Assembly: GCA_030457025.1 (NCBI GenBank)
Contig: JAKDSA010000022.1
Span: 1-37,282, forward strand
Source of the DNA: Brevibacterium sp.
Lineage (GTDB): Bacteria > Actinomycetota > Actinomycetes > Actinomycetales > Brevibacteriaceae
Direction of reading: 5' to 3'
DNA length: 37,282 bases
In this document: in pieces, positions 1 through 33,914 of the stretch
Numbering within the stretch: position 1 is the first letter of the stretch
Layout: each line of letters starts with the position of its first letter
Program-made: the position numbers and the translations under genes
Notes under the pieces: model-generated
What the model saw: only the letters and a program-made list of their open reading frames with translations
What the model was told of the DNA's origin: nothing
Database searches by the model: none

Positions 1-1210
1 CGAACCCTCCCGCGAACCCTCCTACGCTCCCGAAACCGTCCTCGTCGATGCGGGCCGCCCGCAGCGCGGCGACGGAGCCTCGGTCAACCCACCCATCGAA
101 CTGTCCTCGACCTTCGTGGGCAGCGGAGACATCGCCACGTCGCCATATGCCTACGGGCGATTCGACACACCCGCGTGGGGCCCCTTCGAGGCGGCGCTGG
201 GCAAACTCGAACATGCCGCGCTTCCCGGGCTGGTCTACGGATCGGGCCTGGCCGCGATCGCCTCGACGCTCAGCCTTGTCCCACGCGGCGGCACACTGTT
301 TATGCCTCGCCACAGCTACCAAGGATCACTGCAGTCGGCCGGCGAGATCGCCGAACGCTGCGGATTCGACCTCGTCACCGTCGACATCGCTGACACCGAG
401 GCGGTCATCGACGCACTCGACGCCCTCGAGGCGAACCGCTCGGTCGCCGACGAGGATCCGACTGCCGATGACAACCGAGGGGTTGCCTCGGCGATGCTGT
501 GGATCGAATCCCCGACCAACCCGATGCTCGAGGTCGCGGACATGCCGAGGCTCATCGCCGCCGCCCGCGACAGGGGCATCCTCACCGCCGTCGACAACAC
601 CTTCGCGACCCCGCTCCTGCAGACGCCGCTCGACCTGGGCGCCGACGTCGTCGTCCACTCGGTCACAAAGTACCTGGCCGGGCACTCGGATGTGGTGCTC
701 GGGGCGGCGCTGACCAGCAGTGACGATCTGCACGTTCGGCTCCATGCCGATCGGTCGATGCGCGGTGCCATCGCCGGGCCCTTCGAGGTCTGGCTGGCGC
801 TGCGAGGTCTGCGGACATTGTCGGTGCGCATGGAGCGTGCCCAGGACAACGCCGCCCAGATCGCCGATCGCCTCAGCTCGCATCCGAACGTCGTCGAGAC
901 CCGCTACCCGGGTCTGCCTGGGGACGCCGGGCACGACCGTGCGGCTGGGCAGATGAGCGGCTTCGGTGCGATCATCGTGTTCTGCGTCGAGACCGCGCAG
1001 CAGGCCACAGCCATCGCCGAGGCGGTCCGACTCTGGACCCCGGCCACGTCCCTGGGCGGCGTCGAATCCCTCATCGAACGCAGGCGCCGCCACGCCTCGG
1101 AGCCGACGTCGGTCCCCGAAGGATTGCTGCGCCTGAGCGTGGGCATCGAACACGCCGACGATCTGTGGAACGACCTCGACGCGGCGATCCGTGCCGCCCA
1201 CGTCGCCTGA
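1..1210 (+). CDS. PLP-dependent trans-sulfuration enzyme (cystathionine gamma-synthase/lyase family), 5' partial
   Basis: The reading frame is open from base 2 and has no ATG, GTG or TTG before the late GTG at 116. Homology to the family begins well before 116 (the PPIELSSTFV stretch at about bases 95-115), so the true start lies left of the window. About 402 residues are visible, close to the usual 380-400, so only a few are missing. The PLP-lysine motif SVTKYLAGHSD is at bases 659-691, preceded by the aspartate-containing TAVDNTFATP. Family members are cytosolic and interconvert cystathionine, homocysteine and cysteine, or cleave methionine. Synthase, gamma-lyase and methionine lyase cannot be told apart here. 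The stop codon overlaps the start of the next gene, so the two are translationally coupled. The first 22 bases hold a small direct repeat of CGAACCCTCC. Confidence 0.9.
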   Translation, partial: EPSREPSYAPETVLVDAGRPQRGDGASVNPPIELSSTFVGSGDIATSPYAYGRFDTPAWGPFEAALGKLEHAALPGLVYGSGLAAIASTLSLVPRGGTLFMPRHSYQGSLQSAGEIAERCGFDLVTVDIADTEAVIDALDALEANRSVADEDPTADDNRGVASAMLWIESPTNPMLEVADMPRLIAAARDRGILTAVDNTFATPLLQTPLDLGADVVVHSVTKYLAGHSDVVLGAALTSSDDLHVRLHADRSMRGAIAGPFEVWLALRGLRTLSVRMERAQDNAAQIADRLSSHPNVVETRYPGLPGDAGHDRAAGQMSGFGAIIVFCVETAQQATAIAEAVRLWTPATSLGGVESLIERRRRHASEPTSVPEGLLRLSVGIEHADDLWNDLDAAIRAAHVA

Positions 1211-1779
1211 TGGTGGAACCGTTCGTGCTCGACCGGCCAGGGCTTGGGGACCTGGACGAGGTGTTCGAGATCTACAGTGACCCCCGCGTCTGGACGCACT
1301 TTCCCAGCGGTCGGATGACGAAACGGGAGGAAGCCGAGGCGTTCCTCCTCACACGCATCGCCGATTGGGAGATCGATGGGTTCGGGATCTGGATCGTCCG
1401 CGAATCGGAGGGCGGCCCGGTGCTGGGGACCTGCGGCTGCGGCGTGAGACGCATGCCCATGGCCGATGAGTGGAGCCCCGACCGGATCGAAGCCTTTTGG
1501 AACCTCGGCTACCGCTTCCGACCCGAGGTTCAGGGTCGCGGCTACGCCAGCGAGATCTCTCGGCTGGCCATCTCTCGGGCCCAGGAACTCAATCCCAGCC
1601 TGCCGGTCATCGCCTATCTCCTTGAGCGCAATGCGGCCTCGCTGAAAGTGGCGGAGAAGGTCGGCCTGAGCCTGCAGCATCGTGCCCCGGACGCAGGCAA
1701 TCCAGACCCGCAGGCGATGCGACTGATCTTCGCTGACCGGAAACTGACCGCGAGCCAGTTGGCCGTCGCACTGGTCTGA
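1210..1779 (+). CDS. GNAT family N-acetyltransferase (RimJ/RimL-like)
   Basis: The protein has 189 residues from the ATG at 1210, which shares its A with the TGA of the upstream gene. This overlap implies translational coupling. The acetyl-CoA binding signature lies at residues about 104-120 (RPEVQGRGYASE, matching the Q/R-x-x-G-x-G/A pyrophosphate loop). It is followed by the ERNAASLKVAEKVGL stretch typical of strand beta6/helix alpha4 in RimJ/RimL-type enzymes. The protein transfers an acetyl group from acetyl-CoA to a primary amine, and the substrate cannot be inferred. No membrane segment or signal peptide is seen. Its position behind a sulfur amino-acid enzyme does not reveal the substrate. 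Confidence 0.88.
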   Translation: MVEPFVLDRPGLGDLDEVFEIYSDPRVWTHFPSGRMTKREEAEAFLLTRIADWEIDGFGIWIVRESEGGPVLGTCGCGVRRMPMADEWSPDRIEAFWNLGYRFRPEVQGRGYASEISRLAISRAQELNPSLPVIAYLLERNAASLKVAEKVGLSLQHRAPDAGNPDPQAMRLIFADRKLTASQLAVALV

Positions 1780-1883
1780 GCACGCTGCCGAACTGAGCGG
1801 GTGACGCGGAGCCGCATCAGGCGTACGGTGGTGACCGAAGCGCGCTTCTACGGACTGTAGAAGACAAGTGGGAGGGAGTGATC

Positions 1884-2882
1884 ATGCATGAGCACGGGAT
1901 GAGCGGACTGATGTGGCACCCGACACTTCCGCCGACGTTCCTGCGAGTCATCGACTGGCACCTCCAGCCGATCCCCATCATCGTCATTCTCGCGGCGTTC
2001 GGCCTGGTGCTGTATGCCTTCTGTGTGTGGCTGCTGCACCGCCGCGGAGTGAAGTGGCCGATCACACGCCTCATCTGGTGGACGTTGGGCATCGCCACCG
2101 TCATCCTCGTCGATGGCACGGCGTTGAATGGCTATGGCATGGCACTGTTCAGCATGCACATGATCCAGCACATGATTCTGTCGATGCTCAGCCCCATCCT
2201 GTTGGTCTTGGGCGCGCCGATCACCCTGATGCTGCGTGTCCTGCCGGCCGGGTCGGGTCGGTGGAATGCGCGCCGGGTGATCCTCTCCATCGTCCACAGC
2301 CCGCCGATGCGCGTGCTGACCAACCCGGTCGTGACAACCGTGCTGTTCCTGATGAGCTTGTACGGGCTGTATTTCACGCCCGCCTTCGACTGGCTGATGT
2401 CGACGATGTGGGGACATAACCTGATGTTCATCCACTTCGTGGCCATCGGGATGCTCTACTTCTGGAACATCTTCGGAGTCGACCCCTCACCGCGCACGAG
2501 CAGCAAGCGGCGAGTCCGCATCGATCCCACCGTAGTTCAGGTCTTCGAGATCGTGGCCACCGTCCCGTTCCACGCGTTCTTCGGCATCGTCGTGATGATG
2601 TCGACGACCTTGCTCACGAACTTCTACAGCATGCCGATGTGGGGCATCGATCCATTGGACGACCAGTTCCTCGGCGGCGGCATCGCGTGGGCCTTCACGG
2701 AGATCCCGACGCTGATCATGCTCGGGGTGCTGGTGCTCAAATGGCAGAGATCGGATGAACGCCTGAGTCGCCGTCTCGACCGCCAAGCTGCCAGGGACGG
2801 TGACGCAACACTGCAGGACTACAACGCGTATCTGGCTTCACTGGCTGAGGCGGACCAGCACGACCGACGCCACAGGGCGTGA
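1884..2882 (+). CDS. Cytochrome c oxidase assembly protein, CtaG (caa3-type) family
   Basis: This is a 332-residue polytopic membrane protein. The ATG at 1884 is preferred over the in-frame GTG at 1878 because GGAGG at 1871-1875 sits 8 bases upstream of it. Hydrophobic segments run through most of the first 290 residues. The family's conserved methionine/histidine cluster is present (SMHMIQHMILSMLSPILLV, around residues 93-111), as are the NLMFIHF and PFHAFFGIV helices. The C-terminal 40 residues are charged and cytoplasmic. In this family (PF09678) the protein assists copper or heme centre assembly of the terminal oxidase. No oxidase subunit genes are in the window, so the role is inferred from family membership only. 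Confidence 0.88.
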   Translation: MHEHGMSGLMWHPTLPPTFLRVIDWHLQPIPIIVILAAFGLVLYAFCVWLLHRRGVKWPITRLIWWTLGIATVILVDGTALNGYGMALFSMHMIQHMILSMLSPILLVLGAPITLMLRVLPAGSGRWNARRVILSIVHSPPMRVLTNPVVTTVLFLMSLYGLYFTPAFDWLMSTMWGHNLMFIHFVAIGMLYFWNIFGVDPSPRTSSKRRVRIDPTVVQVFEIVATVPFHAFFGIVVMMSTTLLTNFYSMPMWGIDPLDDQFLGGGIAWAFTEIPTLIMLGVLVLKWQRSDERLSRRLDRQAARDGDATLQDYNAYLASLAEADQHDRRHRA

Positions 2883-2954
2883 CCCAGAACAACTTATCGT
2901 GCGTTAAGGTGGGTGGGGAAGATCAGTCATCCAGCGCCAACCAGAGGAGTCGCT

Positions 2955-3713
2955 TTGACCTCGAGTGTTCTCACCGACCTGCACGATGGGGTCGTGACTG
3001 TCACGATCAATCGCCCCGACAGCCTCAATGCGCTGACTCGGGAATCCATGGAGGCGATCGGTGACGCTGTCGCCGAAGCGGCCACCTCGGCGCGGGCGGT
3101 CATCATCACCGGCAACGATCGGTCCTTCAGCTCGGGAGCCGACCTGCAGGGATCGGTGCAGGGCGGAGGGCTCGGGCTGGAGAAAGCCAACGCGATCATC
3201 CGCTCGATCGTCGACCTGCCGGTTCCGACCATCGCAGCAGTCTCCGGCCCGGCCGCCGGCATCGGCTGCTCCCTGGCGCTGGCCTGCGACTACACGATCA
3301 TGAGCGAAGAGTCCTACCTGATGCTGGCGTTCACCAAGATCGGCCTCATGCCAGACGGCGGAGCCACGGCACTGGTCGCCGCCTCGGCGGGTCGGCATCG
3401 AGCCATGAAGATGGCGCTGACGGCACAGAAGGTGTGGGCGAAGGAAGCCTTCGACTGGGGGCTGGCCAGCGAGGTTACGCCGGCGGGCGAGCACTTGGGC
3501 CGGGCACGGGAGATCGCGACGCAGTGGGCGCAGGGCGCGCCTCTGGCCTTCGCCGCGTCGAAGGACGCCATCAACAAGGCGGCGCTGACCGAGCTCGACG
3601 AGGCATTCGACCGCGAACTCAAGGGGCAGACCGCCCTGCGTGACAGCAAGGACTTCGCCGAAGGAGTCACAGCATTCATGGAAAAGCGCGGCCCGAACTT
3701 CACCGGGCAGTAG
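2955..3713 (+). CDS. Enoyl-CoA hydratase/isomerase (crotonase family)
   Basis: The protein has 252 residues if translation starts at the TTG at 2955, which has AGAGGAG at 2943-2949 upstream; the longer frame from 2913 lacks a site. Crotonase signatures are the oxyanion-hole segment SFSSGADL (about residues 57-64) and AAVSGPAAGIGCSLALACDY (about 95-114). The segment FTKIGLMPDGGAT follows. It carries aspartate where classical hydratases have the second catalytic glutamate, a pattern closer to PaaG-like isomerases. The likely role is hydration or double-bond isomerisation of acyl-CoA in the cytosol. An acyl-CoA synthetase follows 217 bases downstream, consistent with fatty-acid or phenylacetate-type degradation. 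The exact substrate is not determined. Confidence 0.88.
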   Translation: MTSSVLTDLHDGVVTVTINRPDSLNALTRESMEAIGDAVAEAATSARAVIITGNDRSFSSGADLQGSVQGGGLGLEKANAIIRSIVDLPVPTIAAVSGPAAGIGCSLALACDYTIMSEESYLMLAFTKIGLMPDGGATALVAASAGRHRAMKMALTAQKVWAKEAFDWGLASEVTPAGEHLGRAREIATQWAQGAPLAFAASKDAINKAALTELDEAFDRELKGQTALRDSKDFAEGVTAFMEKRGPNFTGQ

Positions 3714-3930
3714 TTCGAGGTCAGCAGCTCGACTTCCGCTTATTTCTAATTGGTAACATTGCGTCGAGAATTGTGACCGCTATCACCAGGAGGGATAGTC
3801 TGGCGTTGAAGGTGGCCCGGCCGCCCACATGATCTGACGTGATCTGGCTGCGACAGCTGACCCGAATCGAACCGCCCTCCGACCGCGCAACATAGCATCC
3901 CAGTACGACCACCCTGACCAAAGGAGTCTC

Positions 3931-5562
3931 ATGCTCACAGGTATTCCGTCCACCCTCGGTGACAGCTACCAGCTCAACACCACGAATATGATCCGCCATG
4001 CCGCGACTGTCTTCGGCGAGTCAGAGGTCGTCTACCGCCGGTCGGACGGTTCCTGGGGCCGATCGAACTATGCAGGTGAGTTCAAACGGATGGCTCAGCT
4101 GGCGCACGGTCTCGATGAGCTCGGCGTCGGGGCGGGGTCGATGGTCGGCGTCATCGACTGGAACTCGCGTCGCCACCTCGAACTCTACTTCTCGGTTCCC
4201 GGTGTTGCCGCCACCATGCTCCAGCTCAACCTGCGCCTGGCGCCCGAAGATCTCGCCTACGTGGTCAGCCACTCGAAGTCCGACTGGATCTTCGTCGACG
4301 AGTCCCTCCTCCACGTCGCCGAGGCACTCGCCCCGAAGCTCGACGTCAAGGGCTGGGTCGTCATGACCGACAAGTCCGCCTCAGAGATCGAGACGACGCT
4401 TGAGAATGTCGTGTTCTATGAAGACCTCATCGCTGACAAGCCCGAGACCTATGACTGGCCCGTCGTTGACGAGAAGACTGCAGCCTATGCCGGTTACACG
4501 ACCGGTACGACCGGCCGCCCCAAGGGTGTCTATTACTCCCATCGGTCCATCTACCTGCACACGATGGGCGGGCTGGCCGCACTTCACGCGGACTTCACCG
4601 ACTGTGTCATGCCGATCACCCCGATGTTCCACGTCTTGTCCTGGGGCTTCCCGCAGAACGCGGTTGCCGCCGGTGCCAAGCTCGTCCTGCCCGGCAAGTT
4701 CGCCGCCGAGGAGTTCGGTGCCATCGGTCAGGCGTTCATTGAGGAGAAGGTGACGCTGGCCAATGGTGCGCCCGCGATCTTCACTCCGATGCTCGCGATG
4801 ATGAAGAATATGCCGACCCCGCCCGACCTGACCGGAGTTCGGCTCGTCTCCGGGTCCTCCGAGCCGCCGCTGTCGATGATGCGCGGGTTCAAGGAGGTCA
4901 CCGGCGCCGAGGTGATCCACGGCTACGGTGCCACCGAGACCACCCCGCTGGCGACGACGAACTGGGGGCTCAAGCCCGGTGTGGACCTCAGTGAGGACGA
5001 GAGGTGGGACCTCAAGCGCTACCAGGGTCTGCCGATCATCGGCGTCGAAGTCAAGATCGTCGACCCGACAGGAGAGGAGATGCCTCGCGACGGGAAGTCC
5101 GTGGGCGAGATCGTGATGCGTGGACCGTGGATCACGGAGTCCTACTTCCAGCTGCCGGATAATGCCGATCGGTTCCTCGATGGCTGGTGGCGCTCGGGTG
5201 ACGTCGGCGTCATTGATCAGAATGGGTACCTGAAGATCACCGACCGCCTCAAAGACGTCATCAAGTCCGGCGGCGAGTGGATCTCTTCGATCGACATGGA
5301 GAACGGGATCCTCGACAACCCCAACGTCAAGGAAGCTGCCATCATCGGAGTCCCTGATGAGAAGTGGGATGAGCGCCCGGTGGCCTATGTCGTGGCCAAT
5401 GACGGCGCCGAGGTGACCCGGGAGTCCATCGTCGAAACGCTCAGCGAGCGCTTCGCCAAGTGGCAGATGCCCGATGAGGTCAATGTCGTCGAGGAGCTGC
5501 CGCGCACCTCGGTCGGCAAACTCGACAAGAAGCTGCTGCGCAAGAACTGGGATGAGAAATAG
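3931..5562 (+). CDS. Fatty-acyl-CoA synthetase (AMP-forming, AlkK/medium-long-chain type)
   Basis: This 543-residue adenylate-forming enzyme activates a fatty acid to acyl-AMP and then acyl-CoA. The start ATG has AAAGGAG 7 bases upstream. Core motifs appear in order: the phosphate loop [10 protein letters not shown] at residues about 189-198, GYGATET at about 331-337, the RSGDVG / LKITDRLKD hinge region around 427-449, and the C-terminal catalytic lysine motif GKLDKK at about 529-534. No signal peptide or membrane segment is present. Length and motif spacing match AlkK-like acyl-CoA ligases. Chain length cannot be read from sequence. It follows the enoyl-CoA hydratase gene on the same strand with its own 217-base leader, and ends before a long hairpin that it shares with a convergent gene. 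Confidence 0.92.
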
Positions 5563-5641
5563 AGATATGGGCGCCAGCAGGCCCTCTATGGGCTGAGGGG
5601 TGTCCAGAGGTGGCTCGCCAGAGTGGGCTGAGAGTTCGATG

Positions 5642-5699
5642 CAACGGTGGAGCGCCGGGACAGCTGTGCACGCGCAGTGGTCTCGGCGCTCCATCGTTG
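5642..5699. terminator. Long imperfect hairpin between convergent genes (element A)
   Basis: Arms CAACGGTGGAGCGCC (5642-5656) and GGCGCTCCATCGTTG (5685-5699) pair over 15 positions with one G-T wobble, around a 28-base loop. The hairpin lies between the acyl-CoA synthetase stop (5562) and the stop of the minus-strand gene ending at 5715, so it can terminate both. No clear T tract follows on the plus strand. Its arms closely resemble those of the hairpin at 6855-6922, which is unexpected for unrelated terminators. Confidence 0.7.
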
Positions 5700-5714
5700 T
5701 CACGAGAGGTTGTT

Positions 5715-6680
5715 TTAGGGATTCTCGAGCGCCGAGGTGATGGCCCACTTGATCTGAGCGAAGATCTGCGGTCGGAAGAGGTCTCCGAACGTGAGATTGA
5801 AGACCCGGAATCCGGCGTTGACGAGATTCATATTGCGCTGATGATTCTCACGTGCGGCGTCATCCGGTCCGCTCGGGTGCATGTAGTACTTGCCGATTCC
5901 ATGGACTTCGACGATGACCGGGGCGCTGTCGTGCCGAAAGTCATTCCTGCCGATGAACTTGCCGGTCGACGAAGAGGTCGTGACTTGAGGCCTCATCCCA
6001 GTAATGCCATGTCGGTGGAATTTGACCGCGCAGAAGGCCTCCGCGCTGGATTCATAGACGTTATCGGAGAGTTTGAGCGCCAACCGGGCGCGCTTGAGAC
6101 CCCGAGTTCCTACGACGAAGAATGGTTCGAGCGACTCTCGGACGATGAGGCTTTTCCGCAGCGCTTCCGAGATCAGCGGCACCGAGACCTCCAGCGGGTG
6201 ATCAAGCGCGATGTCGGCAAGCGTTCTGGGCAGGCTGGTCACGGGATAGCCAAGGTCGCGAGCGATGTCTTCGCAGGCGATGTCGCGATCATAGAGCGAC
6301 AGGTCCGGGTACTTGCGAGAGTAAGCGCTCCGAGAGATCTCGACCCTTTTCGTCCCTGTGACAACAGGATCGAGGCCATGGATCAGTGCTGCGGAGACAT
6401 GTGAGAAGACGTCGCCTGGCAGCACCGATTCCCGCCGTGATGCGATGCGAATCCGCAGCTTCTCGACTTCGTCCCTGATGTCGCCGCGGAGCTTGGGAAA
6501 CGTGGTCCCGGGCTCCTGTGCCAGGCGCCGGATGCTGTCGAAATGCGAGAGCGAACAATCGGACATGAGGATGTAGTAGCCGCGTCGCACTCTGCGCAGG
6601 CAGCAATTCAGCGCCGCAGTGAGATCGGTGCGAGGCATATCGAGTTCGGCGAGGTCATTCCTCGTCACGATCCGGAACAT
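5715..6680 (-). CDS. AbiEi-like wHTH / DUF559 (PD-(D/E)XK-like) two-domain protein
   Basis: The protein has 321 residues from the ATG at 6680; an in-frame TTG at 6719 would add 13 residues. The N-terminus (TRNDLAELDMPRTDLTAALN, then a basic VRRGYYIL turn) resembles the winged-helix domain of AbiEi type IV antitoxins. The C-terminal third has the layout of DUF559/Vsr-like nuclease folds: SSAEAFCAVKFHRHGI, then an acidic VIVEVHGIGKYY strand, then ENHQRNMNLVNAGFRVFNLTFGDL. The E-x-H-G-x-x-K-Y stretch occupies the position of the catalytic D/E-x-K core. Such proteins occur in many copies in actinobacteria without an established function. No AbiEii-like toxin gene is adjacent. Base composition is less GC-rich than the neighbours and hairpins lie on both sides. 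Domain assignment is from memory of the families and activity is unproven. Confidence 0.7.
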   Translation of the reverse strand: MFRIVTRNDLAELDMPRTDLTAALNCCLRRVRRGYYILMSDCSLSHFDSIRRLAQEPGTTFPKLRGDIRDEVEKLRIRIASRRESVLPGDVFSHVSAALIHGLDPVVTGTKRVEISRSAYSRKYPDLSLYDRDIACEDIARDLGYPVTSLPRTLADIALDHPLEVSVPLISEALRKSLIVRESLEPFFVVGTRGLKRARLALKLSDNVYESSAEAFCAVKFHRHGITGMRPQVTTSSSTGKFIGRNDFRHDSAPVIVEVHGIGKYYMHPSGPDDAARENHQRNMNLVNAGFRVFNLTFGDLFRPQIFAQIKWAITSALENP

Positions 6681-6720
6681 GTGACGATTATGCACCTTGG
6701 AGACATCAAAGACAATCAAA

Positions 6721-6740
6721 TGGCAGTAAATGCCACTATA
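6721..6740 (-). promoter_or_regulatory. Candidate promoter and operator of the AbiEi/DUF559 gene
   Basis: On the minus strand a TATAGT hexamer (plus-strand 6735-6740) is followed directly by the inverted repeat TGGCA-N5-TGCCA (6721-6735). The predicted transcription start would fall within this palindrome, about 45 bases before the ATG at 6680. No convincing -35 box is seen. A palindrome at the start site fits autoregulation, which is known for AbiEi-type antitoxins. That link is inference. Confidence 0.4.
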
Positions 6741-6854
6741 AGGAATGCGCGATGATGCAATTGCGCAGTCTGGCAGGTCTCGTATTGAGGGAGCCTGACC
6801 GCGCAGATTCGGAACTGGCAGGCCGCAGGGCAGCGGCGTCCGCGTCGCTTGTGT

Positions 6855-6922
6855 CGAAACAACGGCGGAGGGCCGAAACTGCTGTGTGCTCCCAGGGGCG
6901 TCGACGCTCCACCGTTGTGTCG
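6855..6922. terminator. Long imperfect hairpin (element B), similar to element A
   Basis: Arms CGAAACAACGGCGGAG (6855-6870) and CTCCACCGTTGTGTCG (6907-6922) pair at 14 of 16 positions around a 36-base loop. It begins 18 bases after the stop of the minus-strand gene ending at 6940, as element A begins 16 bases after the stop at 5715. Both elements share the core ACAACGG-N-GGAG on one arm and CGCTCC-A-N-CGTTG on the other. A role as transcription terminator is plausible. A dispersed palindromic repeat is the alternative. Confidence 0.6.
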
Positions 6923-6939
6923 GCGAACGGGCGTCTCAG

Positions 6940-7776
6940 TCAGGGATGATGGAGCAGGTATGTTCCGCCTTTGAGGCAGGTGTCGATGACCCAGCCGTCG
7001 GCGACCAGTGCGGTCAGCGAATCGCGCAGCGCCATCCGCCATCGTGAGGCAAGCTCGGCGTCCTGGCCGCGCAGCGCCTCGATATCGGACGGGAAGTCGA
7101 GGGAGACCAGACTGGCTTCCTTGGGCACCTCGGCAACCACAGGCTCGCCGGTGTCGTCGCTGCGCAGGCACTCGAAGGCGTCCTCCGCCTCGGTGAGGGC
7201 GGATCGAGCGGAGTTGTCGAGCCGCCATTGCACGACCATGCGGTCGCTGGCCTGCCCGGCGTTGACCCCGTCGCGCATCTGCCCGTAGAAGTCCTCGAGG
7301 TATTCGACCATGCCCACACCCAGGCGCTGAAAGTTGAAGTATGCGTTGCGTGCCACCAGCGGATCGAAGGTCCAGGTCATCTCCGTGATGCCCAGGTTGA
7401 GACACCACAGGCGCTGATGCAGCTTCATCGCCGATCCCGCTCCGCGACCGATGACCTGATGCCTCACTCCGGCGATATGCGAGTGCATGAGCGTGCCCAG
7501 CGGCTGACCGAAGAAGCCGATCGTCACGCCGATCATCTCGTCGGGCTCGTCGAGGCTGTAGGCCGCCGACACATAGTTTCCCGCATGAGCGAAGGCGACG
7601 ATGAGTCCGGGTTCGAGCACATTGGTGCCCGTCTCGTCGACGCTCCAGACCTCGTCGAGCAGGAGGGCGGCTTCGGCGGCCTCGGCGGCGGTGTGGATCT
7701 CACGCACCTCGATCCGAGCGGCCTCGGCTGCAGCTGCGTACTCGTCCTCGGCCAGAGCGATGATCTCCGAGTCCAC
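6940..7776 (-). CDS. Predicted GNAT-superfamily acetyltransferase, COG3375-like
   Basis: The protein has 278 residues if translation starts at the GTG at 7776, which has GAAGGA 9 bases upstream. The in-frame ATG at 7803 has no ribosome-binding site, and the open frame beyond it to 8052 runs antisense into the divergent gene. The segment GVRHQVIGRGAGSAMKLHQR, with the acetyl-CoA loop G-x-G-x-x-M-K, and the following WTFDPLVARNAYFNFQRLG are hallmarks of this family of uncharacterised acyltransferase-like proteins. The N-terminal 30 residues are Ala/Glu-rich and helical. No substrate is known for the family. It is divergent from the 3-hydroxyacyl-CoA dehydrogenase gene and is followed by hairpin B. 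Confidence 0.8.
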   Translation of the reverse strand: MDSEIIALAEDEYAAAAEAARIEVREIHTAAEAAEAALLLDEVWSVDETGTNVLEPGLIVAFAHAGNYVSAAYSLDEPDEMIGVTIGFFGQPLGTLMHSHIAGVRHQVIGRGAGSAMKLHQRLWCLNLGITEMTWTFDPLVARNAYFNFQRLGVGMVEYLEDFYGQMRDGVNAGQASDRMVVQWRLDNSARSALTEAEDAFECLRSDDTGEPVVAEVPKEASLVSLDFPSDIEALRGQDAELASRWRMALRDSLTALVADGWVIDTCLKGGTYLLHHP

Positions 7777-7887
7777 TGTTGTCAATCCTTCGCGCGGTGT
7801 CATGGTGACATTGTGCCACCGAACTGCCCATCGCAACGGGGTGGAACACGCATATCTGAGGGCGCGGTGGAGGTATAGCCTGGGAGT

Positions 7888-31333: not shown

Positions 31334-31493
31334 TGTCTGCACCCCTCAATAACGAATTCGTCACTTTGCGTCCGCAGCTAGTGCAGCCGCCGCAATTCAG
31401 TCATATCATTTCTGTAGTGGATCGCGACGCGGCGTCTTTGCCGCGCACGGTCCACGACCACGTTCTCACCTCTTTGTGCACGACTGGACACCC

Positions 31494-32663
31494 ATGCCCT
31501 TCTTCGTCTTCCTCAACCATGCCACGAAACGCCTGCGGGCAGGCCTGATCTTCGCTTTCATCGCTGTCCTCAGCCTCGCTCTTCTCTCCGCCTGCGCTGA
31601 GGGCGGCGACGTCGAAGCTGGAGCCGATGAGGCTTCCCGGAGTTCGGAACCGAGCCCAGCAGCTGATGCGACGACGGCGCCTGCAGCCCAGTCGGAGACC
31701 GCTGAGCCCGGTCAGAACAGCCAGGACAGCTCGGGTGGGGGCAGGGCCGAGGAGACAGAACAGGGCCGGGCCGGTGGTTCGACTCCCGGCACAGCCCTGG
31801 CGATGCTCGAGGAGCTGGAGGTCAAGGGGCGGGCCCCGAAGACCGGGTACGACGCGGACCTCTTCACATGGCGGTCTGACGCAGACCGCAATGGCTGCGA
31901 CACCCGCAATGATGTTCTGCGCCGCGACCTGCGCGACATCACCCTCAAGGCAGGGACGAAGGGCTGCGTCGTCATCGCCGGTGACCTCAGCGACGAATAC
32001 AAGGGCGAGACCTACGCCTTCGACCGCGACCCGAACAACATCGACATCGATCACATCATCGCCCGCTCCAACGCCTGGCAGACCGGGGCCGCGAAGTTCG
32101 ATGAGGACACGCTCAGGGAGTTCGGCAACGACCCGCTCAACCTGTTGGCCGTGAGCTCGAGCCTGAACCGGCAGAAGGGTGACGGCGATGCCGCGACCTG
32201 GCTGCCACCGGCCAAGAGCTACCGCTGCGACTACGTCTCCCGCCAGATTGCGATCAAGCACAAGTACGAGCTGTGGGTCGTCAAAGCGGAGAAGTCCGCG
32301 ATGCAGCGAGTGCTTGGCACCTGCAGCAACCAGCCCGCGTTCACGAAGGACGTCGCCTGGCCAGAGCCAGGTGAGGGCGACAACGTGAAGACGGCGGAGG
32401 ACGCCTCGACGAAGAAGAAGTCGAGTTCGAAGAAGTCATCGGGTTCAAGGAAGAAGACGAGCTCGGGATCGAGCTCCGGATCGGGATCGGATTCGCCTGG
32501 CGCGGGGTCGAAGCGGTCCGGCTCAGGTTCGGGCTCGTCAGGCTCGGTCTATTTCGAGAACTGCACCGCTGCTCGTGATGCCGCAGCCGCACCCGTTCAC
32601 CGAGGCGACCCGGGGTATGCGTCCCACCTGGATCGCGACGGTGACGGAGTCGGCTGCGAATAG
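31494..32663 (+). CDS. Secreted lipoprotein HNH nuclease (DUF1524 family) with Excalibur domain
   Basis: The protein has 389 residues from the ATG at 31494; a GTG at 31476 would add six. An N-terminal signal ends in a lipobox (LLSAC, Cys34), so the protein is exported and lipid-anchored. After a Ser/Ala/Thr linker, the nuclease domain carries the family signatures: NGCDTRND (residues about 133-140), IDIDHIIARSNAW with catalytic His187, GNDPLNLLAV, and LNRQKGDGD with Asn225. A basic Lys/Ser linker (residues about 305-350) leads to a C-terminal Excalibur motif, FENCTAARDAAAA to DRDGDGVGCE, a calcium-binding-like module. It is expected to degrade extracellular DNA or act on incoming DNA. Activity is inferred from conserved residues. 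Confidence 0.88.
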   Translation: MPFFVFLNHATKRLRAGLIFAFIAVLSLALLSACAEGGDVEAGADEASRSSEPSPAADATTAPAAQSETAEPGQNSQDSSGGGRAEETEQGRAGGSTPGTALAMLEELEVKGRAPKTGYDADLFTWRSDADRNGCDTRNDVLRRDLRDITLKAGTKGCVVIAGDLSDEYKGETYAFDRDPNNIDIDHIIARSNAWQTGAAKFDEDTLREFGNDPLNLLAVSSSLNRQKGDGDAATWLPPAKSYRCDYVSRQIAIKHKYELWVVKAEKSAMQRVLGTCSNQPAFTKDVAWPEPGEGDNVKTAEDASTKKKSSSKKSSGSRKKTSSGSSSGSGSDSPGAGSKRSGSGSGSSGSVYFENCTAARDAAAAPVHRGDPGYASHLDRDGDGVGCE

Positions 32664-32792
32664 TCGCCGCTGGTTGCCGGGGCAGCTGATCTCCTCGGCG
32701 GCAGAACAGTTTCGTTTTCAACAGATAACGAATCGGTGACGGAATGGGTGAAAGCGACTGCTGTAGAGACAACCTGCCCTAACATTTCAAGC

Positions 32793-33914
32793 GTGCCTAA
32801 TTCGATGAACTCCGCAGACGCTGCTCGCAGCACTCGAATTCGGGCAGTCTCCCTTCTGGCCATACTTGTCTTTGCGCTGCTCTCCGGGTGCGCGGGCGGC
32901 AGTGGGGGTGAGGTCGTCGGAGGTGAAGTGGCCTGGTCGACCGGTGGAGGAGGATCCGCCGATTCGGACCCGGTGCCCTCACGACCTGCGGCCTCGGCAG
33001 CACCAGCCCCTGGCCCTCGACCGCATGGCGGCGACTCAGAAGTGCCCGCGAGTTCGGGCCCTGACGTCTCGGCGCAGAATGAGGCGACGCCCGCAGCGGG
33101 AGACGAAGGCAACAGCGATTCTCCTCAGCACAGTGCAGGTGCTGCAGAGTTGGGCGCGGCACGGTCGATGCTCGACGAGCTTGAGGTCAAGGGCAAAGAT
33201 CACACCACCGGTTACGACCCACAGCTCTTCGACTGGTCGGCAGACGTCGATGGCAACGGCTGCGATACACTCAACGACGCGCTCAGGCGCGACCTGAGAA
33301 GCCTTCAGATCGAGGCCGGGACGAAGGGGTGTGTTGCCACCGCCGGTGACCTCGAGGACGAATACTCGGGTAAGGCATACGGCTTCGAGCACGGATCGGC
33401 CACTGTCGACATCGACTTCATCGTCTCCGGTTCCAATGCCTGGCAGACCGGGGCCGCTGCCATGTCCGCCGAGGAGCTGCGGGAGTTCGGAAACGACCCG
33501 CTCAACCTGCTGACCGTGAGCGCAGACCTCATTCGGCAGAAGGGCGGCGGAGACGCGGCCGCATGGCTGCCACCGAACGAGTCCTTCCAGTGCGAGTACG
33601 TCTCTCGCCAGATCGCAGTCAAGCACAAGTACGGACTGTGGGTGGCCGCCGCGGAGAAGGGTGCTATGCAAGCCGTGCTCGACACCTGCGCGGATCAGCC
33701 CGCCTTCACCAGGGAAGTGGCTTGGCCGAAACCGGGCGAGAGCGTGAAGACTGAATCGGCCGCCGGGGAGTCCACGCAGCAGTCCTCGACACAGCCCTCT
33801 GGTGAGGACTCGGAAACCGACTCGACAGAGCCCTCAGCGAATCCGGCCGCTCAGGAAGCGGCTGATGACGACGCAGACGCCTCCACCGCGGAGCGGACTG
33901 CAGACGCCGACTGA
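32793..33914 (+). CDS. Paralogous lipoprotein with an inactivated DUF1524/HNH domain
   Basis: The protein has 373 residues from the GTG at 32793, placed 7 bases after TAACAT and so possibly leaderless; an ATG at 32805 is the alternative. A signal with perfect lipobox LLSGC (Cys33) anchors it outside. Its central 190 residues align end to end with the preceding nuclease, including GCDTLND, GSNAWQTGA and FGNDPLNLL. However, the catalytic histidine is phenylalanine (DIDFIV, residue 209), the helix asparagine is isoleucine (LIRQKG, residue 247), KGD is KGG, and both arginines of the NGCDTRND region are replaced. It has no Excalibur domain and ends in an acidic tail (EDSETDSTEPS to DDDADAS). It is most likely a pseudoenzyme, with immunity, regulatory or DNA-binding roles all conceivable. 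Confidence 0.85.
   Translation: MPNSMNSADAARSTRIRAVSLLAILVFALLSGCAGGSGGEVVGGEVAWSTGGGGSADSDPVPSRPAASAAPAPGPRPHGGDSEVPASSGPDVSAQNEATPAAGDEGNSDSPQHSAGAAELGAARSMLDELEVKGKDHTTGYDPQLFDWSADVDGNGCDTLNDALRRDLRSLQIEAGTKGCVATAGDLEDEYSGKAYGFEHGSATVDIDFIVSGSNAWQTGAAAMSAEELREFGNDPLNLLTVSADLIRQKGGGDAAAWLPPNESFQCEYVSRQIAVKHKYGLWVAAAEKGAMQAVLDTCADQPAFTREVAWPKPGESVKTESAAGESTQQSSTQPSGEDSETDSTEPSANPAAQEAADDDADASTAERTADAD

What the first reader, a model, noticed from the sequence alone, without database searches (positions are those of the whole stretch)
31494..33914. Tandem secreted lipoproteins: an intact DUF1524 nuclease followed by its catalytically dead paralogue
Seen: two adjacent lipoproteins share a collinear central domain of about 190 residues. 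Copy one keeps the HNH histidine (DIDHII), the helix asparagine (LNRQKGDGD) and NGCDTRND. Copy two has Phe, Ile and Gly at the first three, and loses both arginines around NGCDTRND, while the surrounding scaffold (GSNAWQTGA, FGNDPLNLL, AAWLPP) is kept. Known: these residues form the metal/catalytic site in HNH nucleases. Inference: selection has kept the fold but not catalysis, so copy two may bind the same substrate, or bind copy one as an immunity or inhibitor partner. A surface nuclease plus pseudo-nuclease pair would be a new two-component DNA defence, nutrient-scavenging or competition system.
Basis: partly seen in the sequence, partly recalled or inferred. Interest (0 to 1): 0.8.

Follow-up and report, generated by a model that had tools for sequence, protein, structure and literature searches.

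The report
Conserved dead twin of secreted nuclease
Some Brevibacterium species carry, right behind a probable DNA-cutting surface lipoprotein, a second copy whose cutting site is lost but whose protein is kept by natural selection, so the copy probably does a different, still unknown job at the cell surface.

Summary
Copy 1 (31494-32663) is a lipoprotein with an intact GmrSD_C/DUF1524 HNH domain and an Excalibur tail. Copy 2 (32793-33914) is a 59%-identical paralogue without Excalibur, with Phe for the HNH His and Ile for the helix Asn. It is not strain decay: at least 12 of 57 Brevibacterium genomes carry a copy-2-type gene (10 beside an intact copy 1, one beside a copy 1 split by an insertion, one alone in the same slot). 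They form one clade (bootstrap 100). Asn is lost in 12 of 12 and His in 10 of 12; 47 unbroken active-type ORFs lost neither. Copy 2 is under purifying selection (omega 0.16-0.17), keeps a lipobox, has a private linker motif and has become acidic. Both genes carry the same upstream box, resembling the MtrA box, so they are probably co-regulated. Obligate immunity fits badly: 22 genomes have the intact nuclease at this locus without copy 2, and one has copy 2 alone. Most likely copy 2 is a retained pseudonuclease with a protein-binding or modulatory role in the envelope. Activity, interaction and partner are untested.

The parts
31349..31364 (+). Upstream box ATAACGAATTCGTCAC before copy 1 (MtrA-box-like)
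31494..32663 (+). Copy 1: lipoprotein HNH nuclease (longest ORF starts at GTG 31476; ATG 31494 likely)
31593..31595 (+). Copy 1 lipobox Cys codon (LLSAC)
31899..32309 (+). Copy 1 GmrSD_C (PF07510) HNH domain
32052..32054 (+). Copy 1 HNH His codon (DIDH), general base by homology
32166..32168 (+). Copy 1 helix Asn codon (LNRQK), metal ligand by homology (my mapping)
32553..32660 (+). Copy 1 Excalibur calcium-binding domain (absent from copy 2)
32725..32740 (+). Upstream box ATAACGAATCGGTGAC before copy 2; in 10 aligned pair loci ATAACGAA is the longest fully conserved run upstream of copy 2 apart from the run that holds the GTG start
32793..33914 (+). Copy 2: pseudonuclease lipoprotein (GTG 32793 likely start; ORF listed from 32736)
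32889..32891 (+). Copy 2 lipobox Cys codon (LLSGC)
32925..32987 (+). Copy-2-specific linker motif EVAWSTGGGGSADSDPVPSRP
   Evidence: STGGGG in 12 of 12 copy 2, 0 of 51 other ORFs (4 of the 51 broken or cut)
33270..33674 (+). Copy 2 GmrSD_C domain, fold kept by prediction, catalytic residues lost
33417..33419 (+). Copy 2 Phe codon in place of the HNH His
33531..33533 (+). Copy 2 Ile codon in place of the helix Asn

Best explanation
Copy 2 is a conserved pseudonuclease: an old paralogue of a secreted, membrane-anchored HNH nuclease that lost first the metal-site Asn and then, in most lineages, the general-base His. It is kept by purifying selection as a non-cleaving surface lipoprotein and is probably expressed together with copy 1 through the same regulatory box. 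I think its job is protein binding in the envelope (tuning or positioning copy 1, or holding another envelope partner) rather than DNA binding. Shown: one origin, loss of catalytic residues, purifying selection, a shared box, an acidic shift, a private linker motif. Inferred: no nuclease activity, the surface location, co-expression. Guess: the binding partner. Rough probabilities: retained pseudonuclease 0.9; co-regulated with copy 1 0.7; protein-binding or modulatory role 0.5; acting on copy 1 itself 0.3.
For: His93 is kept in 47 of 47 unbroken active-type sequences but 2 of 12 copy 2, and Asn131 in 47 of 47 against 0 of 12. At these sites copy 2 varies freely (F/Y/Q/L/H and I/M/K/S), while 63 of the 91 columns conserved (90% or more) in active types are identical in all 12 copy 2. 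Clade support is 100. Omega is 0.164-0.174 for copy 2 against 0.080-0.085 for copy 1; omega=1 is rejected, 2dlnL 217 for the 10-sequence core. Gene order is conserved. The copy-2 model is confident (pLDDT 89.9) and, like copy 1 (88.3), ranks nearest to the Vvn/EndoI exported nucleases. In relatives, H508A kills Eco94GmrSD cleavage and N676A impairs SspE. TAACGAA lies upstream of all 12 copy 2 and all 10 copy-1 partners; background 0.017 per 420 nt. Net domain charge averages -18.4 in copy 2 against -3.5 in copy-1 partners, with K58E and K147E in 12 of 12. STGGGG linker motif 12 of 12 against 0 of 51.
Against: No interaction or activity was measured. Some active-type relatives are also very acidic (net down to -21), so charge alone does not exclude DNA binding. 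The two early-branching copy-2 proteins (G028, G021) keep His; since Eco94GmrSD N528A and N535A stay partly active, they may still cut weakly. A partner role for copy 1 is not demanded by the gene pattern: G021 has copy 2 alone and G052 has copy 1 split. The second half of the box is poorly conserved, and the sites are related by descent, so they are not independent. No PDB match reached E 0.001 for either model; the solved GmrSD-family member BrxU ranks only 16th for copy 1 and is not among the 50 matches of copy 2.
Confidence: 0.5

Rival explanations
1. Copy 2 is a non-cleaving DNA-binding surface receptor that holds DNA for copy 1 (nutrient scavenging or uptake).
For: The Asp next to the lost His is invariant in all 12 copy 2, and the scaffold around it is largely kept. 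Eco94GmrSD H508A is cleavage-dead but still binds DNA.
Against: Copy 2 lost or reversed basic residues common in active forms (K58E, K147E in 12 of 12; R33 kept in 2 of 12; R150 kept in 3 of 12) and has a mean net domain charge of -18.4, plus an acidic tail in the 11 measured. Eco94GmrSD N522A, also inactive, binds less well.
Confidence: 0.18
2. Copy 2 is a dedicated inhibitor or immunity protein for copy 1.
For: Tandem order, shared upstream box, an acidic protein that could mimic DNA. Unrelated inhibitors of His-Me nucleases are known: Nin for NucA/NucB and NuiA for Anabaena NucA (passages of PMC5758888).
Against: 22 genomes have an intact copy-1-type gene at the same locus with no copy 2 seen there, and G021 has copy 2 without copy 1. 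An exported nuclease is not obviously dangerous to its maker (inference).
Confidence: 0.17
3. Copy 2 is a slowly decaying duplicate without a function.
For: Omega is about twice that of copy 1. The former active-site positions vary freely. I found it in only 12 of 57 genomes.
Against: Omega=1 strongly rejected; no stop inside the domain matches; lipobox, linker motif and upstream box kept in all 12.
Confidence: 0.07
4. Copy 2 is still an enzyme, with migrated catalytic residues or another substrate.
For: The metal-side Asp and the structural Asn of the HNH are invariant; two orthologues keep His.
Against: No residue is gained consistently at either lost site (F/Y/Q/L; I/M/K/S), which argues against a new common chemistry.
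Confidence: 0.08

Closest known systems
GmrSD C-terminal / DUF1524 HNH domain (PF07510), e.g. GmrD, SspE, BrxU
   Same: Same Pfam family. Copy 1 keeps the D-H...N...N residues named for GmrD (D113, H114, N169, N178; passages of PMC4619093; the mapping onto copy 1 is mine).
   Different: Copy 1 and copy 2 are stand-alone exported lipoproteins with no GmrS/DUF262 half found in or beside them. Copy 2 lacks H and the last N. By fold, BrxU is only a weak match (rank 16 for copy 1, E 0.26).
Periplasmic/extracellular endonuclease I (Vvn, Vibrio EndoI)
   Same: Best PDB fold matches of both models (Foldseek prob 0.90-1.00 for these entries; best E 6e-3 for copy 1, 5e-2 for copy 2); also exported beta-beta-alpha-metal nucleases.
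   Different: Only 12-16% identity, query-normalised TM 0.39-0.51, no match at E 0.001 or better; no sequence-level match in the PDB.
NucA/Nin and NucA/NuiA nuclease-inhibitor pairs
   Same: A nuclease with a separate protein inhibitor; in B. subtilis the nucA and nin genes are adjacent (passage of PMC5758888).
   Different: Those inhibitors are not described there as nuclease paralogues; here the second protein is a dead copy of the nuclease, and no inhibition has been shown.
Pseudonucleases of the fungal Dis3/RNase II family (Ssd1 and others)
   Same: Inactive relatives of a nuclease kept as binding proteins (titles and starts of abstracts of PMC8097288 and PMC8934651 in the listing).
   Different: Other fold (recalled), eukaryotic, RNA-binding.

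Membership tests
GmrSD_C / DUF1524 HNH nuclease (copy 1) | Profile match over the curated cut-off | tested here: met
   78.1 bits against cut-off 23
GmrSD_C / DUF1524 HNH nuclease (copy 1) | D-H, structural N and metal N present | tested here: met
   DIDH, NDPLN, LNRQK
GmrSD_C / DUF1524 HNH nuclease (copy 2) | Profile match over the curated cut-off | tested here: met
   40.5 bits against cut-off 23
GmrSD_C / DUF1524 HNH nuclease (copy 2) | Catalytic His and metal Asn present | tested here: not met
   Phe and Ile; 10 of 12 copy-2 sequences lack His, 12 of 12 lack Asn
GmrSD_C / DUF1524 HNH nuclease (both) | Cleaves DNA | not testable with these tools
   needs an assay
GmrSD type IV restriction enzyme | GmrS (DUF262) NTPase partner or fusion | tested here: not met
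   no such Pfam domain in either protein or in the six neighbouring ORFs scanned
Bacterial lipoprotein | Signal peptide with lipobox Cys | tested here: met
   LLSAC and LLSGC after hydrophobic stretches; a lipobox in 12 of 12 copy 2; judged by pattern, no signal-peptide predictor on hand
Nuclease-immunity/inhibitor pair | Nuclease not found without its partner | tested here: not met
   22 genomes with the intact nuclease at this locus and no copy 2 seen
Nuclease-immunity/inhibitor pair | Partner binds and blocks the nuclease | not testable with these tools
   no co-folding or assay on hand
MtrA regulon | 8-bp direct repeat, 3-bp linker, (A/G)TAACAATttn(A/G)TAACAAT | tested here: inconclusive
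   first half and the 11-bp step fit, second half poor
MtrA regulon | Genome encodes MtrA | tested here: met
   one match over NF040689's cut-off, 383.4 bits against 300
Anti-phage defence system | Match to a known defence protein | tested here: not met
   0 PADLOC matches for 4 proteins, the two copies and two neighbours

The most novel reading that the evidence does not exclude
A two-protein surface nuclease module in which a dead, acidic paralogue made under the same envelope-stress (MtrA-type) control binds the living enzyme and sets its activity or place in the cell wall: a regulatory subunit evolved from the enzyme itself, in effect a built-in DNA-mimic brake on an extracellular nuclease.
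Probability: 0.22. Interest if true: 0.62.

Novelty: new variant of a known kind. Interest (0 to 1): 0.42.

Why it matters
Relatives of this nuclease are widespread in the class (288 of 394 genomes match a copy-2 profile at E 1e-20), yet none of the titles listed in seven literature searches (lists cut at 8-20 papers) deals with the exported form. A natural series at one locus, from active enzyme through Asn-less but His-keeping to fully dead yet selected proteins, lets one test how a nuclease turns into a non-enzyme. The shared box may tie an exported nuclease to cell-wall control.

Tried and rejected
Strain-specific decay: rejected by 12 orthologues and omega. Defence system: no PADLOC match for 4 proteins; named neighbours are a TauE permease, two thioesterases, HxlR and LysR. 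Copy-2-type proteins outside the genus: none seen in what I read. 42 of 42 relatives checked (29 best-scoring class-level hits to the copy-2 profile, one of them in the genus, and 13 viral-contig hits) keep the His; the Asn pattern matched in 39 and is visible by eye in the other 3. This is a best-hit sample, not a census: one search lists more matches that I did not read, and its list is cut. An order-level family scan (253 of 297 genomes match) could not be used to find tandem pairs because its match list is cut. In the genus I did not fetch every PF07510 match (most of those left out have long frames of 500-1000 residues), so 12 of 57 is a lower bound. A tandem pair with both copies keeping His and Asn exists in G023 (L044), so tandem duplication alone does not mean inactivation. 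PDB by sequence: no match. The promoter scan found no promoter-like site and 2 terminator-like sites, 1.1 expected. The first box pattern had a base set at the wrong place and found 0; the corrected one found 9. PHROGs: copy 1 matched only in its tail and linker part, copy 2 not at all.

Dropped before counts: 4 broken or cut ORFs (L041_3283, L042_4281, L082_1481, L083_5769) were left out of the 47 active-type sequences; 'active-type' means every other ORF outside the copy-2 clade. The tree used 59 of 63 ORFs, those with at least 150 residues. The omega fits used the 190-codon domain only.
Full report
WHAT IS THERE. Two same-strand lipoprotein genes lie at 31494-32663 and 32793-33914. Both hold a GmrSD_C (PF07510) domain; only copy 1 has a C-terminal Excalibur domain. 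They are 59% identical. The genome has one further PF07510 match, on another contig. Copy 1 has DIDH...NDPLN...LNRQK; copy 2 has DIDF...NDPLN...LIRQK.

WHICH RESIDUES MATTER. Passages of PMC4619093 assign GmrD D113 (metal), H114 (general base), N169 (structural) and N178 (metal). The 9-residue step from N169 to N178 matches N122 to N131 here (my mapping), so copy 2 keeps D and the structural N and loses H and the last N. Passages of PMC4437046: Eco94GmrSD D507A, H508A and N522A are dead, H508A still binds DNA, and N528A and N535A keep about 25-50% activity; which of these Asn corresponds to N131 I could not settle. A passage of PMC9646914: SspE N676A is markedly impaired. So loss of His should kill cleavage; loss of the helix Asn alone may only weaken it.

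RECURRENCE. A family scan of 57 genomes of the genus found PF07510 in 52. I fetched 52 regions around many, not all, of the matches and found 63 ORFs by tblastn, the window's two included. Twelve ORFs in 12 genomes are of the copy-2 type; 12 of 57 is thus a lower bound. Ten sit beside an intact copy 1 (G000, G002, G004, G005, G016, G017, G028, G045, G047, G056). In G052 copy 1 is split by an insertion. In G021 copy 2 stands alone where the pair should be, and the family scan gives G021 only this one match. The twelve form one clade, UFBoot 100; G021 and then G028 branch first and are the two that keep His. The simplest order is: Asn lost first, His later. The place of the clade among active sequences is poorly supported (58), so the time of duplication is open.

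CONSERVED, NOT DECAYING. In 47 active-type sequences (all unbroken ORFs outside the clade) His93 and Asn131 are invariant; in copy 2 they are kept in 2 and 0 of 12. Of 91 columns conserved at 90% or more in active types, 63 are identical in all 12 copy 2. Codon models give omega 0.080 (copy 1, 10 sequences) and 0.174 (copy 2, 12); for the closer sets of 9 and 10, 0.085 and 0.164. omega=1 is rejected with 2dlnL 217 (copy-2 core), 311 (copy 2, all 12) and 245 (copy-1 core). Pairwise NG86 medians over 45 genome pairs are 0.124 and 0.188; in some pairs copy 2 is the more constrained one. So copy 2 is freer than copy 1, but far from neutral. G021's lone copy is also constrained (0.15-0.25 against five others).

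WHAT CHANGED. Mean net charge of the domain: copy 2 -18.4 (range -24 to -10), copy-1 partners -3.5 (-6 to -1), 37 other active types -5.9 (-21 to +9). In 12 of 12 copy 2: K58E (Lys in 37 of 47 active types), K147E (Lys in 42, Arg in 4 of 47), and Asp at position 31 (Lys in 28 of 47). R33 and R150 are mostly lost. Copy 2 lacks Excalibur, and its C-terminal tail is acidic (net -5 to -20) in the 11 orthologues measured (for G021 the script did not find the domain start). A linker motif 12 residues after the lipid Cys (WSTGGGG...DPVP) is in the copy-2 sequences, its STGGGG core in 12 of 12 and in 0 of 51 other ORFs. A retained short motif in an otherwise loose linker and an acidic surface suggest a protein-binding role; this is inference.

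STRUCTURE. Best PDB matches for both are Vvn and Vibrio endonuclease I, with weak E-values (6e-3 and 5e-2; none at 0.001 or better) and query-normalised TM 0.39-0.51. BrxU, a solved GmrSD-family enzyme, ranks 16th for copy 1 and is absent from the 50 matches of copy 2. No sequence match in the PDB.

A SHARED UPSTREAM BOX (new). ATAACGAATNNG occurs without mismatch twice in the window, before copy 1 (31349) and before copy 2 (32725); with up to one mismatch there are 4 matches, 0.40 expected. Upstream of copy 2 in 10 aligned pair loci, ATAACGAA is the longest fully conserved run apart from the one that holds the GTG start. TAACGAA lies within 420 nt upstream of the lipobox (or of the domain where no lipobox was found) in 43 of 63 ORFs, including all 12 copy 2 (153-163 nt before the lipobox) and all 10 copy-1 partners (232-234 nt). 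The background in the same loci, these sites included, is 53 in 1,316,594 strand-bases. The sites are orthologous, so they are not independent. The 20 ORFs without it are mostly the more distant relatives. In the whole genome RTAACGAATNNGTNAC has 3 perfect matches (the two copies and one other) and 6 with one mismatch, against 1 for the reversed pattern. Of the seven other sites, two precede NlpC/P60 proteins, two precede an M28 peptidase gene (and a second, divergent gene), one lies before a secreted repeat protein (and a divergent gene), one lies just behind a LytR_C gene, and one lies inside an ORF. The C. glutamicum MtrA site is (A/G)TAACAATttn(A/G)TAACAAT, and its targets include mepA, mepB and nlpC (passages of PMC3353115). 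The genome has one MtrA over the NCBIfam cut-off. I read the box as a candidate MtrA site; its second half is weak, so this is open. That both copies keep it argues for common control.

AGAINST A REQUIRED PARTNER. At the same locus (beside an ORF that I labelled SseB from memory; it has no Pfam or NCBIfam match) 22 genomes have an intact copy-1-type gene and no copy 2, counted by me: L045, L047-L059, L061-L063, L065-L067, L072, L079. So copy 1 does not need copy 2.

WIDER. The family is widespread in the class. 42 of 42 relatives that I read from other sources (41 of them outside the genus or on viral contigs) keep the active site. The dead form therefore looks like a Brevibacterium invention, within what I sampled.

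LITERATURE. Nine searches (two were on NucA/Nin and on MtrA). No listed title concerned a dead paralogue of an exported DUF1524 nuclease; the lists show 8-20 of 8 to 7,794 papers, and the library holds open-licence papers only. Papers were seen as listings or passages, none in full.

VERDICT. A real, selected pseudonuclease lipoprotein, probably co-regulated with its active twin; the mechanism is open. A new variant of a known kind (pseudoenzyme beside enzyme).

Noticed in passing
L041:3283-3726 and L042:4281-4460 (G052); L082:1481-1912 (G019): The copy-1-type nuclease gene is interrupted at the same place in two species, within the codons of the HNH helix (after LNRQ), by near-identical elements (98.6-99.7% over three blocks of 1.1-3.0 kb) that start with a tyrosine-recombinase gene (PF00589). 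In G052 the two gene pieces lie about 15.6 kb apart. A mobile element seems to aim at the conserved nuclease codons.
   Followed up: partly
window 31349-31364, 32725-32740; L134-L140, L143-L147: Candidate MtrA-type regulon in Brevibacterium: the box RTAACGAATNNGTNAC also lies before two NlpC/P60 genes and an M28 peptidase gene, and just behind a LytR_C gene.
   Followed up: partly
L044:1049-2804: G023 has a different tandem pair of PF07510 lipoproteins in which both copies keep His and Asn.
   Followed up: no
L089-L101: Thirteen viral contigs encode relatives of the nuclease that keep His and Asn, so this nuclease type also travels with phages or prophages.
   Followed up: no
G622, G608, G470, G566, G662, G381, G615, G527, G452: Nine class-level relatives, all of one family code (f35), are listed with one in-frame TGA in the profile match; not examined further, and a stop near the domain end could explain it.
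   Followed up: no
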